Shown: positions 14,856 through 23,306 of the stretch, one piece after another
Layout of the letters: the number at the start of each line of letters is the position of its first letter
Position numbering within the stretch: the stretch's first letter is position 1
Virus record (IMG/VR): IMGVR_UViG_3300035698_006745
Span: 1 to 24,034 of that record
Strand: one strand, 5' to 3'
DNA from: a virus
DNA length: 24,034 bases
The notes under the pieces: generated by a model
What the model was told of the DNA's origin: nothing
The model's database searches: none
What the model saw: only the letters and a program-made list of their open reading frames with translations
Program-made: the position numbers and the translations under genes

Positions 14856-15494
14856 CTACTTTACTATTGCTCTCTTCTTAGTCGTACCTCGAAGCCATCT
14901 AACTAGCAAGTAGCAGAACGGTGTATCTACTAAAGCTATTATTAGTTTAATGGCGTATTGTGCTAGCATCATACCCCACATTGCTCCCCAAGGTAATACA
15001 CCCCAGAATGCTAATGATATAAATATGAAAGTATCAATTGCTTGCGACACTACAGTACTTGCGTTATTTCTTAACCATAAATGTTTTCCCTTAGTGATGG
15101 TCTTCCAAAAGTGAAACGCCCATACATCGTGTGTTTGCGATACAAGATATGCTACTAGTGATGCTCCAACTATTCTAGGCACTGCACCTAAGATAAGTTT
15201 GAAGGCCGCTTGATCACCCCAAAATACTGCTGGCGGTAAAGCTATAGCGGCATAAAACGCACCTACTAAAATCACATTAGCTAAAAAGCCAAGCCATACA
15301 ACTGTTTGTGCCTTCTTTTTACCGAACACCTCTGCTACAACGTCAGTAAACAAAAACGTGATTGGATACATAATTATACCCGCTGTAATCGCGATGTTGC
15401 CTATCATGAACAATTTGCTTGCTATGATGTTTGCGGCTAATAAGCATGTCACAAATATTGTGAATAGAATGCTATATTTAGTGTTTTGTTTCAT
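14856..15494 (-). CDS. yhhQ: Queuosine precursor transporter, YhhQ (VUT) family
   Basis: 212 aa integral membrane protein with about six hydrophobic segments. Family features visible are the N-terminal VTCLLAANIIASKLF segment, ITAGIIMYPITFLFTDVVAEVFGKKKA near residues 37-60, and RNNASTVVSQAIDTFIFISLAFWG near 142-165. The S-Q-x-x-D-T-x-x-F motif is conserved in YhhQ proteins. E. coli YhhQ imports preQ0 and preQ1. The gene follows QueC with an 11-base gap and has its own GGAGG, so import and synthesis of the same base are encoded together. It is the last gene of the operon and is followed by a terminator. Confidence 0.9.
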   Translation of the reverse strand: MKQNTKYSILFTIFVTCLLAANIIASKLFMIGNIAITAGIIMYPITFLFTDVVAEVFGKKKAQTVVWLGFLANVILVGAFYAAIALPPAVFWGDQAAFKLILGAVPRIVGASLVAYLVSQTHDVWAFHFWKTITKGKHLWLRNNASTVVSQAIDTFIFISLAFWGVLPWGAMWGMMLAQYAIKLIIALVDTPFCYLLVRWLRGTTKKRAIVK

Positions 15495-15504
15495 ATATTC
15501 CTCC

Positions 15505-16251
15505 TTAGTCGTTGTGCCCCCACGGCACGCATCCTGCCCAGATAATATCTATTGCATATTCCACTGGGTCAATCAAACCATTATATTTAAAAGCCTGAAT
15601 ACGGTCTAAACAAGTTCCGCATTTACCACACGCTATTTCGCCCCCGTCGTAACAACTATGCGTCCGCTCTAATGGTACCTTTAATATTTCTGCTATACGC
15701 ACAATATCTCCCTTTGTTCTCCATATATAAGGAGCATAAAAATGTACTTGTCCATTTGTTCCAATTTTGATAGCATCACCCATAGCAGTTACAAATTCTG
15801 GTGAGCAATCAGGATAAGCTGCCCCCGCATCATCTGAGTGAGCGCCGTAATAAACTTCCTTTGCACCTATTGTGTAAGCAAAAGCTGTTGCATGTGCTAA
15901 TAACACACCATTTCTGAAAGGCACGTAAGTTTTAACAATACCATCCGCTTTTAGGCTATCTGAATAACTCTCATGAGCTAAGTTTGCTTTCTTATCCATT
16001 AAGGGAGATAAATTAAATGGTCCCGCACCATAATCAGGAAGACCCATAACATGCATATTTATCCCATAGTAATTCGCCAACTTCTGTGCACGTTTTATCT
16101 CAATCTTATGGCGTTGTCCATAATCTATACATAAAGCACAGATTTCATCCTTTGGAAGCTTTCCTTCTACTTCTTCCCCTTTTATTAAGTCCGCTAATAA
16201 TGTCGTGCTATCCAATCCTCCCGAAAACAATACTACTTTATTTGGTGTCAT
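15505..16251 (-). CDS. queC: 7-cyano-7-deazaguanine (preQ0) synthase QueC
   Basis: 248 aa from the ATG at 16249-16251, which has GGAGG seven bases upstream; a longer in-frame start at 16284 would add an Arg-rich stretch with no homology look. The PP-loop motif SGGLDST is at residues 10-16, VPFRNG at 110-115 and HSDDAGAAYPDCSPEF near 138-153. The zinc site is C200-x7-C208-x2-C211-x2-C214. QueC converts 7-carboxy-7-deazaguanine and ammonia to preQ0 using ATP. All key motifs are intact. It overlaps the end of the 98-aa gene by 14 bases. FolE, QueD and QueE are not in the window, so the substrate must come from the host or from phage genes elsewhere. Confidence 0.93.
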   Translation of the reverse strand: MTPNKVVLFSGGLDSTTLLADLIKGEEVEGKLPKDEICALCIDYGQRHKIEIKRAQKLANYYGINMHVMGLPDYGAGPFNLSPLMDKKANLAHESYSDSLKADGIVKTYVPFRNGVLLAHATAFAYTIGAKEVYYGAHSDDAGAAYPDCSPEFVTAMGDAIKIGTNGQVHFYAPYIWRTKGDIVRIAEILKVPLERTHSCYDGGEIACGKCGTCLDRIQAFKYNGLIDPVEYAIDIIWAGCVPWGHND

Positions 16252-16534
16252 CTTTCTCCTCCTTCTGTTTATCCGTAAATACATGTAACATCAACGTATC
16301 ATTGAATAAACCAATAGTGTTTATAAAAGTTTTATCTTGTATGTCTTTATAATCCTGCCCTGTGCCCCTCATATATATCGGTACAAGCGTATGTGTGTCT
16401 TTATCAGAATCAAGTAGTACATAGAGCACTAACTCTTTACGCTGCTTCGCCATCGATAAAATACGAATAAGACCTTTAATGTCTACTGTTTGCTCATCTA
16501 CAACTGGAAGGGTATACTTATATACTGTAATCAT
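16238..16534 (-). CDS. 98-aa protein of unknown function
   Basis: Starts by ATGA overlap with the polymerase stop, with AAGGAG inside the last polymerase codons, and its own 3' end overlaps queC. It is therefore firmly part of the operon. The sequence is a compact alpha-beta protein (MITVYKYTLPVVDEQTV, a VLYVLLDSDKDTHTLVPIYMRGTG segment, a second beta strand pair and a charged tail). It resembles small DUF7352-type phage proteins that begin with a Tyr-Lys-Tyr strand. No catalytic motif is apparent. Its function is unknown; the location suggests a replication or modification accessory. Confidence 0.7.
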   Translation of the reverse strand: MITVYKYTLPVVDEQTVDIKGLIRILSMAKQRKELVLYVLLDSDKDTHTLVPIYMRGTGQDYKDIQDKTFINTIGLFNDTLMLHVFTDKQKEEKDDTK

Positions 16535-19011
16535 TTATTCTCCTTAATTTGTCTATACCATGTATCAAATCGCATATGATTCTTTTCACTGACTAATATT
16601 CTTCCTGATTCATCATCGTATTCAGTCAATTCTCCCCAGTTAAGGCCTATCTCTACGTCTGTTGTAAACTTAAGAGAAGCCCCCATCATCTTAGGTGCGC
16701 GTGACATATAATCAGCCACGGTTCTTAAAGCTGTCTGCACAACCTTATCATATGCAGGTAATTCTAATAGCAATGAGTCATGTACTAAGTTTACTATTTT
16801 AATCTTGGGCGATATCTGCGCCAATACAGGCTCCAACATAATAGAGGCGAGGAGTAAGCAATCAGAAGAAATTGATTGAATTGGAAAATTACGTGCTTCC
16901 TTCTGGAGTTTGAAGAGTGATTCTCTAGCTACTAGACCAAACCTTCTTCTTCTGCCAAATGGTGTTTCTAAATAATTACCTTCTCTAACCTGATTAGCAC
17001 ACCAGTTCAAATAGTCGCGTGCTTCAGGGTATGCATTTAGCCAGGCATCTAACATACGTTGCGCTTCTGCATGTGGTATGTTATACTCTTCAGCTAACGA
17101 ATGTGCTTCACGACCATATGGAATACCAAAGTTAACAGCTTTTGCACGCATATAATCTTTCTTGGAATACTCTTTACCAAATAATGCAATAGCAGTCTCA
17201 ACATGAAATTTTCTATCGTTTGCAAAGATGTTTGTTAGTACCTTATCTTTACTTAATACGGCAAGCCATCGGGACTCAGCACTCGAATAATCAACCTCTG
17301 CAAGAATCTTTCCCTCAGGTGCTATGAATGATTTTCGTATGTTACCCATGCCATTAGCTGATGGTTGGTTCTGCACGTTAGGTTCCTTACTACTCAATCT
17401 GCCTGTTGCTGTTACATGCAATGTAAAGTTCGATCTTACACGCCCATCTGTATCACGGCGATTCAAGAGACCATCTACATATGTTGACTTCTCTTTCTGT
17501 ACTGTCCTGTATTGCAAGATTTGTTCAATCAAATATGGCTTCGGTTCAATAGAGGCTAACACTTCTTTAGCGGTACTACGTTTCTTTCTTATCCTAGGCT
17601 TCAAATGCATCCTGTCAAATACCATCCAAGACACTTGCCCTGGCGAACCCGGATTAAATACGAAGGGAGCTGTCTTTGCCCCTGTATCTTTCATATAATC
17701 ATTCCTACTCCAGAACACTTCCGCTTCCCGTTGAATATCTTCTATTAGCTCTTCCAGTAATGCTGAATAGTCTATAGATAAGCCTTCCAAATACTCTGGG
17801 TCAATTAATAAGCCATTCTGTGAGACTCTTGATAAATGATTACCTGCAGGAATTAATAACTGTTCATATAACGCTTTTAGTTTAGGTTCTTTCTCTAACT
17901 CTTGTTCCAGTATCAAAGAGATACGCTGTGTATAGTCACAATCGACCGAGACACGCTCACAAAGAGCTTCAAAGAAAGATTCATACGAATCCAAGTTCAC
18001 AGCTTTCCAATTTTGATTCATTTTAAACTTATATTCAGGTGCTCCTAGATATACTTTGGACAAATATCCTAAATCGTGTGCGGATGTTTCATCTAAAGCG
18101 TAGTGTTGCAATATGGTATCGCGGTCAATAGAAACATCTCCCAAACCACGGCGCCATAAAATGCGCTTATCATACGTTCCGCCTTGCCACACCACTGGTA
18201 CGTCCGTTTCGGTAAAGAAACGAATATACTGGTCCATATTTTCTCTTGGCACAACATATACTCTGTTATCAGCATAAGAAAAACCGCCAACTAAAAATTC
18301 AGCTGTTCTATAATCTAAGCCTGTAGTCTCAATGTCTGCCCCAGCAAGTTTTAACTCACCTCTATTGCGTAAATCTTGAACATGTATTAAAGCCTCAGTT
18401 ACATCTTCGGGTGCCCATAATACTGTCCATTCTGTTTCTCCTAAATCTGCTATTGTTCCACCTTTAAGTACAGAACACACTTTTCTCATAGTTGTTAAAA
18501 ATGGTTTGTATTCATTAGGTGAATACTTAAACACACCGGGGTTTCTAGCATATACAGCCGTATACATATGGTCATCTTCTGTTATTACTTCTAACGACCT
18601 GCCGTAGTTATCTTTTATAGGTAGTTTATTATCGCAATGATATGTTTGCATTGCTGTTTTGCCACAAAGAAGAACTACTTGAGGTTTTACGCGTCTAATT
18701 TGTTCATGCAAATCTGTGCTGCAACGTACCATGGGGTCTGCTGCTAACTTTCCTTTTTTGATAACCTTAGGAATAGCACAGTAATAGGCTGCCGTGAATG
18801 CAATAGAATATTGACGTTCTGTCCAGCCACATTTTTGCAATGAACCTCTTATGATGTTGACTAAGTCTTTAGGCATCTGTTTATGCTGTATAGCTTGTAT
18901 CGTAAGTGTATCAAAAACAACTAGAATATCAAAATGTTCTCCATCTCGAACTTCTAGATGAACATACTTACTATATTCACACTGAGCACAATGATTTTGC
19001 ATTAAATCCAT
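16531..19011 (-). CDS. polA: Family A DNA polymerase with N-terminal uracil-DNA-glycosylase-like domain and 3'-5' exonuclease
   Basis: 826 aa with three parts. Residues 1-180 resemble type 4 uracil-DNA glycosylases: C8-x2-C11 and C78 and C97 occupy the iron-sulfur cysteine pattern, and KPQVVLLCGKTAMQ matches the family's P-x-x-V-x-x-x-G strand. The catalytic GEAPG and HPS motifs are replaced (VFDTLT and ARNPGV), so glycosylase activity is doubtful. Residues about 220-370 are a DnaQ-like exonuclease (D226-I-E228, then TYDKRIL near 279, and VDCDYTQR near 356). Residues about 380-826 are the polymerase: motif A DYSSAESR (D574), motif B K624-x3-F628-x3-YG, motif C VHDS (D745). The usual Glu after that Asp is Ser. 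A fused glycosylase-like domain is known in SPO1-type polymerases. It starts three bases after the dpdA stop. Confidence 0.92.
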   Translation of the reverse strand: MDLMQNHCAQCEYSKYVHLEVRDGEHFDILVVFDTLTIQAIQHKQMPKDLVNIIRGSLQKCGWTERQYSIAFTAAYYCAIPKVIKKGKLAADPMVRCSTDLHEQIRRVKPQVVLLCGKTAMQTYHCDNKLPIKDNYGRSLEVITEDDHMYTAVYARNPGVFKYSPNEYKPFLTTMRKVCSVLKGGTIADLGETEWTVLWAPEDVTEALIHVQDLRNRGELKLAGADIETTGLDYRTAEFLVGGFSYADNRVYVVPRENMDQYIRFFTETDVPVVWQGGTYDKRILWRRGLGDVSIDRDTILQHYALDETSAHDLGYLSKVYLGAPEYKFKMNQNWKAVNLDSYESFFEALCERVSVDCDYTQRISLILEQELEKEPKLKALYEQLLIPAGNHLSRVSQNGLLIDPEYLEGLSIDYSALLEELIEDIQREAEVFWSRNDYMKDTGAKTAPFVFNPGSPGQVSWMVFDRMHLKPRIRKKRSTAKEVLASIEPKPYLIEQILQYRTVQKEKSTYVDGLLNRRDTDGRVRSNFTLHVTATGRLSSKEPNVQNQPSANGMGNIRKSFIAPEGKILAEVDYSSAESRWLAVLSKDKVLTNIFANDRKFHVETAIALFGKEYSKKDYMRAKAVNFGIPYGREAHSLAEEYNIPHAEAQRMLDAWLNAYPEARDYLNWCANQVREGNYLETPFGRRRRFGLVARESLFKLQKEARNFPIQSISSDCLLLASIMLEPVLAQISPKIKIVNLVHDSLLLELPAYDKVVQTALRTVADYMSRAPKMMGASLKFTTDVEIGLNWGELTEYDDESGRILVSEKNHMRFDTWYRQIKENK

Positions 19012-21070: not shown

Positions 21071-21580
21071 CTAGTCTAGAAAAGTTCCTGAGCCTTCAGG
21101 TGCTAGTACATCGGCTACTCTATTCTGTTTTCCTGGGTACTCAGCGTTGCCGTTCGCTATTTTCAAACGAATCTGGCATAATGCTCCTGCGATGAGCCCT
21201 TGATCTGCTGCAGCCTGTGGATTAAAACTACCTACATCGACGTTAGGGCGTACACGTGTTAAGAAACCTTTAAGTTTTCCTCTTCCGAATTTGCCACCAT
21301 CTTTGCCACCTGCGAGTGTCATGTAATCATACAAAACTCTGCCAGCGAATTCGCCGTCAACAATTTTATACTTTAATGTGCACATAGGATTGCCCGTTGA
21401 AGAATCACCAAAATCAAACTCATCCACTACAGCATTATAAATGCCCTTAGGGATTAGTTCAAACGTTGGTTCAGAATCTTTGGTTAGGTCATAAACCATA
21501 CCTGCTGCGTCGTTAGCTCCTGATACTTTCGCATCAGCGTCAGCACCCTTGTTCCCAAATAAGCTTCTTTTCTCTGTCAT
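21071..21580 (-). CDS. ssb: Single-stranded DNA-binding protein, DUF669 family
   Basis: 169 aa with GGAGG six bases before the ATG. After a flexible N-terminus (about 1-38) the OB-like core has LIPKGIYNAVVDEFDFGDSS (42-61), TGNPMCTLKYKI (62-73), DGEFAGRVLYDY (75-86) and a GRGKLKGFL segment. These are typical of DUF669, a phage SSB family. The C-terminus ends in Asp, as in many SSBs. DUF669 genes usually sit with Sak4 and RecB/Cas4-like nucleases, as here, forming a recombination and replication module. The noncoding region upstream carries its likely promoter. Confidence 0.88.
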   Translation of the reverse strand: MTEKRSLFGNKGADADAKVSGANDAAGMVYDLTKDSEPTFELIPKGIYNAVVDEFDFGDSSTGNPMCTLKYKIVDGEFAGRVLYDYMTLAGGKDGGKFGRGKLKGFLTRVRPNVDVGSFNPQAAADQGLIAGALCQIRLKIANGNAEYPGKQNRVADVLAPEGSGTFLD

Positions 21581-21661
21581 ATGAACCTCCTACCCGACCT
21601 TATACTTCCCGACCATCCTCCCTCTATAATTCGGCATCATAGGATTTCCCCTAATCCACCG

Positions 21662-21690
21662 TTATATATACACGAGTATAAAGTTATTAA
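21662..21690 (-). promoter_or_regulatory. Candidate promoter for the ssb gene
   Basis: On the minus strand TTAATA (21690-21685) is followed 16-18 bases later by overlapping TATATA / TATAAC boxes (21668-21661). It lies just after the hairpin that would end the structured RNA and about 80 bases before the ssb ATG. The -35 box is a poor match, so this is tentative. A small hairpin GGATT/AATCC occurs in the leader. Confidence 0.35.
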
Positions 21691-21703
21691 ATTAAATTAA
21701 GAA

Positions 21704-21739
21704 GGCACCTAGACAAATGATGAGTAAAAACTAGATGCC
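21704..21739 (-). terminator. Possible 3' hairpin/terminator of the structured RNA
   Basis: On the minus strand GGCATCTAG pairs with CTAGGTGCC (nine pairs, one G-U) around an 18-base loop, followed by TTCTTAATTTAATTT. The tail is U-rich but broken by other bases, so termination would be partial or weak. Confidence 0.45.
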
Positions 21740-21746
21740 TAAAAAC

Positions 21747-21884
21747 ATGTATGGTACTTTATTTATAAGTCGCTCGCGACCCTACGAGCCATGGTTTGCA
21801 ATGCTTTATGGTACCATACATTAATAGTTGTAGTAATCGTCGTTGAGGCGACGAAAACGATTATACAATACCATAAGCAATGCA
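21747..21884 (-). repeat. Overlapping inverted repeats forming two competing helices
   Basis: The segment 21797-21821 holds a palindromic GGTACC shared by two helices. Bases 21811-21821 pair perfectly with 21747-21757 (11 bp). Bases 21797-21813 pair with 21869-21884 with one mismatch and one bulge. The two use the same GTA bases, so full formation of one shortens the other. Between the second pair lies a hairpin with a CGTCG/CGACG core at 21834-21863. Confidence 0.6.
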
Positions 21885-22021
21885 CTGGGGCCTGAATGGA
21901 TTTAGTCTATCGTATTAAGAATACTTATCCAAGCAAACGCACTAACGTATTATACCTTTTAACCCCAGCATATAATCTGTTAGATTTTGTCCTCAGCGTA
22001 TATTCGGCTAAACGTTCAGGC

Positions 22022-22111
22022 TGGTGGAAGAGACAGGATTTGAACCTATAATACCAATAACTTGACAACCATGCCCTTGTAATGGTTTCGAACCATTAAA
22101 GCCACTCTCCC
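22022..22111 (-). tRNA. tRNA-like element with encoded CCA; isotype unclear, anticodon arm abnormal
   Basis: On the minus strand GGGAGAG (22111-22105) pairs with CTCTTCC over seven positions (one G-U), followed by discriminator A and CCA at 22024-22022. A correct T arm, ATAGG-TTCAAAT-CCTGT, precedes the acceptor. The total of 90 bases fits a class II tRNA. The middle is odd: a D-loop-like AATGGTTCG has at most three pairs, and the best anticodon stem, CCAT/ATGG, leaves a nine-base loop TACAAGGGC without U33. A strong alternative hairpin AATGGTT-CGA-AACCATT would destroy that arm. If forced, the anticodon would be AAG (Leu). It is more likely a tRNA mimic or decayed tRNA within the structured RNA than a working tRNA. 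Confidence 0.45.
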
Positions 22112-22280
22112 ATAAAAAGGATACCTGTCCGCTTCGAGCGCGCCTGTGACGTCCACTCTCAATGATTCTGATACCCATCTATTCATTATAGGCGAATCGT
22201 CATGATTGAGGTTTTTATATGACCTAAAATTAATGGTGGGAAACCTTAGGTTCTAATGAACATGCGATTCGCTCTATATT

Positions 22281-22310
22281 ATTATAATATGAAAATTTTC
22301 GCTGAATTTG
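22281..22310 (-). promoter_or_regulatory. Candidate promoter of the structured RNA
   Basis: A perfect TATAAT (minus strand, 22286-22281) lies in an AT-rich stretch. Initiation at the G at 22274 would place the first stem (from 22272) at the very 5' end of the RNA. No good -35 box is found at 16-18 bases (the sequence there is CAAATTC), so an activator or a strong upstream AT element would be needed. Confidence 0.4.
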
Positions 22311-22337
22311 ACGGGATATCAATTTCAACTTATTGTT

Positions 22338-23306
22338 TTATTTATCCAGCGCTTTTCCCTGGTCTAATTGATATAGGTCCTTCATTGAGGGATCTTCTAT
22401 CCATAAGTCTTTAAAGACAGAACCAAAACGATTCTTAGCCGCGATATGTCTTCCTGCGTATTCTCCACCTTCAAGAATCAAGTTTCTGCGTATAATACCA
22501 CCTTCAAGTGTCTCACTCATTAACCAGCCTATGACATCCACTAAGCCACGAACATCGTTCGAAAGCTTACCAGGTAATAGAGGTTCGTAATGAAACTGCT
22601 TACGCGCATCAACTTCAGTATCATGTCCGCAAATAAATATACTATGTACAGGCAAGTCTCTATAACGACGCACTAAAAACTGTATCATCTCACGAGAACG
22701 TCCCCAGTCTTGATATTGTGCTGCATCTGGTTCCTTATCTAGTTCTTGCGTTACGGGGTTAATACCTAACAATTGATACATACAGTATTTCTGTGCTTCG
22801 GTAAGTGAATCTGATATAACTGTCCTGAACTCTTTAGGATGAGGTATAAGCTCTTCTAACTGTTCAGGTGTTAATTTAGCAGAATCAGGAACACCTGTTA
22901 TCTGCGCTTCTAGTCGACGTAGTTGTGTATAATCTTTTGCATCCCTAAAACGAACATGCAACTTAAGGAATTCAAAAATCTGTGCATATTGTTTATAACT
23001 TTGTACTGGGATAACTAAGAGATGGTCATTTGGATTAATGTCCTGTTCACGGCACTGCCTGGCAAGTTCTTTTAAGCCCTTTTCTCCACCTTCAAGTGAG
23101 ATGTATAAGATATCTCTCATCTCAGGTACGAAGATAGATGTTCCGGCTAAGAATGTTTTACCTGAACCATAGTCACCATAAAACAATATACACATCCAGT
23201 CGAAAGCCTCTTCTAGTGTTCTTGCTAGGAAAGGTCCCGCTGTGCGTATAGCTGCTGCTGGCGCTGTGGCTGGTGGTTTTAGTGTTCCTGGATTTTGTTG
23301 ACTCAT
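22338..23306 (-). CDS. Sak4-like AAA ATPase (phage recombinase / nucleotide-binding protein, AAA_24)
   Basis: 322 aa with GGAGG before the ATG. Walker A is GDYGSGKT at residues 44-51 and the Walker B strand is TVISDS at 161-166. The N-terminus (about 1-25) is Pro/Ala-rich and disordered. The layout and length fit the AAA_24/Sak4 group, Rad51-related single-domain recombinases that act with a partner SSB. Here the DUF669 SSB is the next protein-coding gene and a RecB/Cas4-like nuclease is immediately upstream, the usual partners. The start lies three bases after the nuclease stop codon. The strand-annealing activity is established for the family and inferred for this protein. Confidence 0.82.
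   Translation of the reverse strand: MSQQNPGTLKPPATAPAAAIRTAGPFLARTLEEAFDWMCILFYGDYGSGKTFLAGTSIFVPEMRDILYISLEGGEKGLKELARQCREQDINPNDHLLVIPVQSYKQYAQIFEFLKLHVRFRDAKDYTQLRRLEAQITGVPDSAKLTPEQLEELIPHPKEFRTVISDSLTEAQKYCMYQLLGINPVTQELDKEPDAAQYQDWGRSREMIQFLVRRYRDLPVHSIFICGHDTEVDARKQFHYEPLLPGKLSNDVRGLVDVIGWLMSETLEGGIIRRNLILEGGEYAGRHIAAKNRFGSVFKDLWIEDPSMKDLYQLDQGKALDK

What the first reader, a model, noticed from the sequence alone, without database searches (positions are those of the whole stretch)
21704..22275. Large, highly folded noncoding RNA candidate in the replication region
In a densely packed phage genome a 757-base gene-free gap is striking. Its minus strand can form at least eight helices of 5-15 pairs, including a 12-bp stem at the 5' end, long-range helices either side of the tRNA-like element, and a hairpin with U-rich tail at the 3' end. 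A TATAAT box is placed so that the RNA would begin at the first stem. The length of about 570 nt and the phage setting match what is known for ROOL (near 600 nt) and GOLLD (near 800 nt) RNAs, whose role is unknown. If it belongs to neither family, it is a new large RNA.
Basis: partly seen in the sequence, partly recalled or inferred. Interest (0 to 1): 0.85.

Follow-up and report, generated by a model that had tools for sequence, protein, structure and literature searches.

The report
Phage leader RNA carrying tRNA-like cargo
The gene-free stretch is real and is very probably transcribed, but it looks less like one giant RNA machine than the long leader of a phage DNA-binding-protein gene, a spot where this phage family keeps its tRNAs, odd tRNA-like RNAs and other small structured RNAs.

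Summary
The 757-nt ORF-free gap (21581-22337, minus strand) between a Sak4-like gene and a DUF669/SSB-like gene is real. Its 5' hairpin (22192-22272) and 3' domain (about 21690-21884) fold better than shuffled sequence. The middle does not, and there is no evidence for the long-range helices. ROOL and GOLLD are excluded by model. No homologue of the window's own RNA was found, so covariation could not be tested.

Fourteen related uncultivated phages show what the gap is: the leader of the SSB gene. It starts with a conserved promoter, ends in a conserved G-rich element, and carries variable RNA cargo between them. All 8 above-threshold tRNA hits in 653 kb of these phages lie in this gap. Several, including the window's, are non-canonical: intact acceptor and T arms, altered bodies. 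The window's element lacks a D arm and has a CGA anticodon, G3·U70 and an encoded ACCA.

Following one relative's cargo exposed a covarying ~48-nt RNA motif in 34 viral contigs, on the tRNA strand wherever checked. It is absent from Rfam, INPHARED and GTDB, and not in the window.

Best reading: SSB-operon leader used as a tRNA/tRNA-like cargo site. Expression and function are inferred.

The parts
22275..22315 (-). Phage-family promoter: CCCGTCAAATTC ... TATTATAATAATATA; transcription inferred to start about 22272-22274
   Evidence: Same element opens the gap in 14 related phages and recurs elsewhere in their genomes. Not a sigma-70 match.
22192..22272 (-). 5'-terminal hairpin (GCGAATCGCATG / CATGACGATTCGC) with an inner CCTAAGG...TTTTAGG hairpin
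   Evidence: z -5.1, pair probability at least 0.97 in the full transcript. By eye, most relatives also have a hairpin right after the promoter, of unrelated sequence.
22022..22111 (-). tRNA-like structure: acceptor GGGAGAG/CTCTTCC with G3.U70, A73 and encoded CCA; no D arm; anticodon arm AATGG-TTCGAAA-CCATT (22081-22097, anticodon CGA); about 31-nt insert; T arm 22033-22049
   Evidence: Rfam tRNA 31.6 bits with alignment; not called by ARAGORN; T-arm plus acceptor search.
21895..22021 (-). Linker without excess structure
   Evidence: z +0.4.
21797..21884 (-). Long hairpin A:B of the 3' domain with a nested hairpin
   Evidence: z -3.1 to -4.2 for the stretches holding it.
21740..21821 (-). Alternative hairpin B:C (11 bp, ATGTATGGTAC/GTACCATACAT) followed by GUUUUU; cannot coexist with A:B
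   Evidence: Perfect inverted repeat; -52.8 versus -56.4 kcal/mol for A:B. Switch function is inference.
21703..21740 (-). 3' hairpin AGGCATCTAG/CTAGGTGCCT, tail without a T run
   Evidence: z -4.4 for 21693-21750; no terminator by scan.
21608..21622 (-). G-tract element GGGAGGATGGTCGGG upstream of the SSB ribosome-binding site (AGGAGG, 21586-21591)
   Evidence: GGGN1-2GGN1-2GGN1-2GG in 11 of 15 phages, 0.09 expected from shuffles.
21071..21580 (-). DUF669 / SSB-like gene, downstream of the leader
   Evidence: Pfam DUF669 7e-8; PHROG 2300 (unknown function) best, PHROG 7778 and 378 single strand DNA binding protein.
22338..23306 (-). Sak4-like AAA annealing protein gene, upstream of the leader
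   Evidence: PHROG 124 3e-26, Pfam AAA_24.

Best explanation
The gap is the transcribed 5' leader of the phage SSB-like (DUF669) operon, used by this phage family as its site for tRNA and other structured-RNA cargo. A phage-class promoter just after the Sak4 gene starts a minus-strand RNA with a 5' stabilising hairpin. The RNA carries a non-canonical tRNA-like structure and a strongly folded 3' domain, and then continues as, or is cut away from, the SSB mRNA, which begins at a conserved G-rich leader. The intact acceptor/T-arm stack with encoded CCA would be the part recognised by host RNase P, tRNA 3' processing and possibly AlaRS (G3.U70), so the tRNA-like piece is probably cut out of the leader, splitting it into a 5' fragment, a tRNA-like RNA and the SSB mRNA. 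Shown: promoter and gap conservation, the tRNA-like anatomy, the location of tRNAs at this one locus in relatives, and the lack of ROOL/GOLLD. Inferred: transcription, processing, charging and effect on SSB expression.
For: Fourteen related phages have a promoter plus noncoding gap upstream of the SSB-like gene, directly after Sak4 in most. In 16 records (653 kb) all 8 tRNA hits over the cut-off lie in this gap. All 11 intact T arms in the gap set have an acceptor partner (10 with 7 of 7 pairs, one 6 of 7) at total lengths of 66-117 nt; shuffles give about 0.1 such T arm per set. Cargo is otherwise mostly unrelated between phages, and five relatives have only a short leader. The G-tract leader before SSB is in 11 of 15. 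The window's tRNA-like element aligns to the tRNA model with the D arm almost absent.
Against: No RNA data. The tRNA-like acceptor stem is not favoured in the full-length thermodynamic ensemble (0.04). The window's cargo has no found homologue, so selection on it is not shown. It may be terminated before SSB, or be an eroding tRNA.
Confidence: 0.6

Rival explanations
1. A single stand-alone large structured ncRNA (about 570 nt) of a new family that works like ROOL or GOLLD, with the tRNA-like element as a built-in domain.
For: Total fold z -4.1; promoter at the 5' end; GOLLD linkers sometimes contain tRNAs and both families sit near phage tRNA islands (PMC12286853).
Against: Structure excess is confined to the two ends. 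Relatives with the same locus do not share the RNA. No Rfam hit.
Confidence: 0.15
2. Cis-regulatory leader of the SSB gene: the mutually exclusive A:B and B:C hairpins act as an attenuator, and the G-tract element as a translational operator for the SSB, as in known phage single-strand-binding proteins that repress their own or other mRNAs.
For: Two near-isoenergetic exclusive folds, the second followed by GUUUUU. G-tract element conserved before SSB.
Against: The A/B/C arrangement was not looked for in relatives and their leaders share no sequence with it; no terminator by scan. Not exclusive with the best explanation.
Confidence: 0.13
3. A decayed tRNA gene with neutral spacer and ordinary hairpins.
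For: Low tRNA score, missing D arm, ARAGORN rejects it; no homologues.
Against: Every intact T arm of the family's gaps still has its acceptor partner, with no orphan T arms, although total length varies from 66 to 117 nt. Random decay should hit all arms. The 3' domain is the best-folded part of the minus strand.
Confidence: 0.12

Closest known systems
Phage tRNA islands/arrays
   Same: tRNAs and other structured RNAs clustered in one noncoding stretch, co-oriented
   Different: Very small, sits in the leader of an SSB-like gene with a conserved promoter, and holds mostly odd tRNA-like elements
ROOL RNA (RF03087)
   Same: Length, phage setting, tRNA neighbourhood
   Different: No covariance-model hit in the window gap or 16 related records
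GOLLD RNA (RF02032)
   Same: Phage setting; can hold a tRNA inside
   Different: No covariance-model hit in the window gap or 16 related records; no homologues
tmRNA tRNA-like domain (RF00023)
   Same: G3.U70, A73, CCA, reduced D arm; a sub-threshold match (18.6 bits, cut-off 47)
   Different: Has a normal-looking anticodon arm; no tmRNA call; far below the cut-off
Phage SSB translational operators (T4 gene 32 leader; G-rich M13 gene II leader bound by gene V protein; from memory)
   Same: G-rich or structured leader before, or regulated by, a single-strand-binding protein
   Different: Different protein family (DUF669); binding untested

Membership tests
ROOL (RF03087) | Match to the Rfam covariance model at or above 99.1 bits | tested here: not met
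   No hit at E<=10 in the gap or in 16 records; the same library detects ROOL at 318 bits in L064
GOLLD (RF02032) | Match to the Rfam covariance model at or above 150 bits | tested here: not met
   No hit at E<=10
GOLLD/ROOL | Multimeric RNA nanocage | not testable with these tools
   Structural property reported in PMC12286853
tRNA (RF00005) | Covariance-model score over the cut-off (29 bits) | tested here: met
   31.6 bits at 22025-22111
tRNA (RF00005) | Canonical cloverleaf with D arm, accepted by a tRNA finder | tested here: not met
   ARAGORN finds none; D arm almost absent and 27-nt insertion in the alignment
tmRNA (RF00023) | Model score over 47 bits and tag reading frame | tested here: not met
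   18.6 bits; ARAGORN finds no tmRNA
Phage tRNA island | tRNA genes concentrated in one noncoding locus conserved in relatives | tested here: met
   8 of 8 over-threshold hits at this gap in 16 records
New conserved large RNA family | Covarying structure across homologues | tested here: inconclusive
   No homologue of the window's cargo found

The most novel reading that the evidence does not exclude
The SSB leader of this phage family is a dedicated platform for non-decoding tRNA-like RNAs (acceptor/T minihelices with CCA, in the window an alanine-type G3.U70 element without D arm) and for new small RNA families such as the 48-nt three-helix motif. These would act as processing signals or decoys for tRNA-directed host enzymes rather than as decoding tRNAs, coupled to SSB expression.
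Probability: 0.2. Interest if true: 0.75.

Novelty: new variant of a known kind. Interest (0 to 1): 0.5.

Why it matters
It replaces a vague 'large RNA' with a testable locus: a conserved promoter, exchangeable RNA cargo and a G-rich SSB leader in a family of uncultivated phages. The tRNA-like elements with intact acceptor and T arms but altered bodies ask whether phages carry tRNA mimics for purposes other than decoding. The locus also led to a covarying 48-nt RNA motif found in 34 viral contigs (with tRNAs, on their strand, in 30 of 30 loci checked), absent from Rfam and from the searched phage and genome collections.

Tried and rejected
ROOL, GOLLD and tmRNA membership: rejected by model. 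Homologues of the window's own RNA by blastn in INPHARED: only chance and T-arm matches; in related gaps and in tRNA-array loci: promoter, T arm and leader only. The 48-nt motif model in the window: no hit at E<=5; the shared GCTTGGATAAG string is therefore treated as chance. SSB-like protein in viral contigs with the single sequence and in INPHARED: none. A promoter pattern with wrong fixed spacing found nothing and cost a scan; the corrected one found the same phage family plus one 4-kb contig, L094, whose ORFs were neither family-searched nor SSB-like by eye. Rfam miRNA and lncRNA matches are long-hairpin chance hits. A ~290-nt RNA shared by L007 and L008 was found in no other viral contig by exact pattern.

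Full report
WHAT IS THERE. The window is a 24-kb viral contig without a near match among 50,697 phage records. The gap 21581-22337 lies between two minus-strand genes: a Sak4-like AAA protein (22338-23306) and a DUF669/SSB-like protein (21071-21580). No long ORF crosses it. ARAGORN finds no tRNA. Rfam gives one hit above threshold, tRNA at 22025-22111 minus, 31.6 bits. No other family reaches significance at E up to 10 apart from a sub-threshold tmRNA match to the same tRNA-like piece.

FOLDING. The 596-nt minus strand folds at z -4.1 and the plus strand at -2.5. A genome-wide scan with 150-nt windows places the excess in 21676-21900 (z -4.2 and -3.6, first and third best of the minus strand). 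The centre, 21901-22125, is at about +0.9. Single parts: 5' hairpin 22180-22272 z -5.1; 3' hairpin 21693-21750 z -4.4; linker 21895-22022 +0.4; tRNA-like piece -1.2. So the 'eight helices over 570 nt' picture is overstated. The long-range helices around the tRNA-like element have no support beyond the energy model.

RELATIVES. Searching IMG/VR with the Sak4 and SSB-like proteins found 14 distinct related phages, 13 of them 51-65% identical in Sak4 and one (L046) found through the SSB-like protein. The SSB-like gene follows Sak4 directly in most; in the L010/L042 and L012/L054 contigs other sequence lies between. Each has a noncoding gap in front of the SSB-like gene, and each gap opens with the same promoter, CGTTAAAAAT...TTTTT..ATATTATATTAATATAAG, of which the window has a variant; a few carry one or more mismatches. 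The promoter recurs elsewhere in these genomes. By eye, most gaps continue with a hairpin of unrelated sequence. They end in a G-rich element before the SSB start: GGGN1-2GGN1-2GGN1-2GG in 11 of 15 phages, 0.09 expected. Two of the exceptions (L008, L009) have a hairpin between the G tracts. Between promoter and G-rich element the content ranges from almost nothing (L001, L003, L006, L042, L054) to about 1.3 kb (L005, L008) and is mostly unrelated between phages.

tRNA AND tRNA-LIKE CARGO. In 16 records (653 kb) all 8 tRNA hits above the cut-off lie in this gap. A search for an intact T arm alone found 11 in the gap set. Every one is followed by an acceptor strand with a partner upstream (10 with 7 of 7 pairs, one 6 of 7), at total lengths of 66 to 117 nt; shuffled sets give about 0.1 such T arm. 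Some are ordinary tRNAs (L014 Arg, L007 Met); others are not: four-base anticodons called by ARAGORN in L005 and L008, a 66-nt element in L005 that by eye lacks a D arm, and 90-117-nt bodies. The window's element has acceptor GGGAGAG/CTCTTCC with G3.U70, A73 and encoded CCA, an anticodon arm AATGG-TTCGAAA-CCATT (CGA), no D arm and about 31 extra bases. G3.U70 is the textbook identity element for AlaRS (own knowledge). By inspection only 2 of the 11 have it, so it is not a family rule. Intact outer arms with variable bodies argue against simple decay, but the set is small.

WHAT IT PROBABLY DOES. The conserved promoter is upstream of the cargo and the G-rich leader is downstream, which makes the cargo part of the SSB leader transcript. 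The simplest mechanism is host tRNA processing at the tRNA-like element, separating it from the SSB mRNA. This is inferred. A second layer may be regulation of SSB: in the 3' domain, hairpin A:B (21797-21884) and hairpin B:C (21811-21821 with 21747-21757, followed by GUUUUU) exclude each other and differ by 3.6 kcal/mol. This is an attenuator-like layout, untested. A weakness: in the full-transcript ensemble the tRNA-like acceptor stem has probability 0.04, against 0.98 alone.

KNOWN FAMILIES. ROOL and GOLLD give no hit in the window or 16 related records. The ROOL model does work here: it finds ROOL in two unrelated tRNA-bearing loci.

A BY-PRODUCT. L007, L008 and L046 carry in this gap a motif of about 48 nt, GGCTTGGGTAAGAGGACCCTGTAAGTAGTTGATAGTGGAACAATAACC. 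Its central 23 nt occur in 34 IMG/VR contigs, many over 100 kb. Ten of 15 base pairs show two-sided changes, covariation score 0.347 against 0.132 shuffled. It lies on the tRNA strand in 30 of 30 tRNA-bearing loci checked. It is inside a group I intron match in L079 and inside another conserved RNA in L007. It is absent from Rfam at E up to 10 except a chance hit, from INPHARED, from GTDB genomes by exact match, and as a sequence string from held papers. It is not in the window.

VERDICT. Real, partly structured, very probably transcribed; not ROOL or GOLLD; no proof that the window's RNA is itself conserved. Best filed as a new variant of a phage tRNA island embedded in an SSB leader.

Noticed in passing
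L062:3665-3735(+), L088:3148-3218(+), L083:14160-14230(-) and 30 further loci in L060-L093: Covarying ~48-nt three-helix RNA motif (GGCTTGGGTAAGAGGACCCTGTAAGTAGTTGATAGTGGAACAATAACC) in 34 viral contigs, with and co-oriented to tRNAs in 30 of 30 loci checked; not in Rfam, INPHARED or GTDB. Candidate new RNA family.
   Followed up: partly
21608-21622 minus, and SSB leaders of L001-L014, L042, L054: Conserved G-tract element GGGN1-2GGN1-2GGN1-2GG before the SSB-like gene in 11 of 15 phages, with a hairpin between the tracts in L008 and L009; possible two-tier G-quadruplex or SSB operator.
   Followed up: partly
L007 gap and L008 gap (L007:4788-5074, L008:4796-5046 approx.): A ~290-nt RNA with strongly conserved blocks shared by only these two phages.
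   Followed up: partly
L007, L008, L009 gaps: A long-stem hairpin module (GGCGGCAGCTTTAATCGGCTGTTGAAAGCC... in L007, similar in L008; by eye in L009; z down to -7.5) resembling a mobile or repeated hairpin element.
   Followed up: no
L005:5148-5219, L008:5140-5213: tRNA-like genes with four-base anticodons (CCTA, TTAA) as called by ARAGORN.
   Followed up: no
16531-19011 minus: Family A DNA polymerase with a predicted uracil-DNA-glycosylase domain at its N-terminus (Pfam UDG 4e-6, DNA_pol_A 6e-76).
   Followed up: no
14856-16284 minus: QueC-like gene next to a Vut_1 family transporter gene; suggests 7-deazaguanine chemistry on DNA or tRNA.
   Followed up: no
22275-22315 minus and relatives: The promoter of this phage family (CGTTAAAAAT...ATATTATATTAATATA) is not a sigma-70 match and recurs once to several times per relative.
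   Followed up: partly
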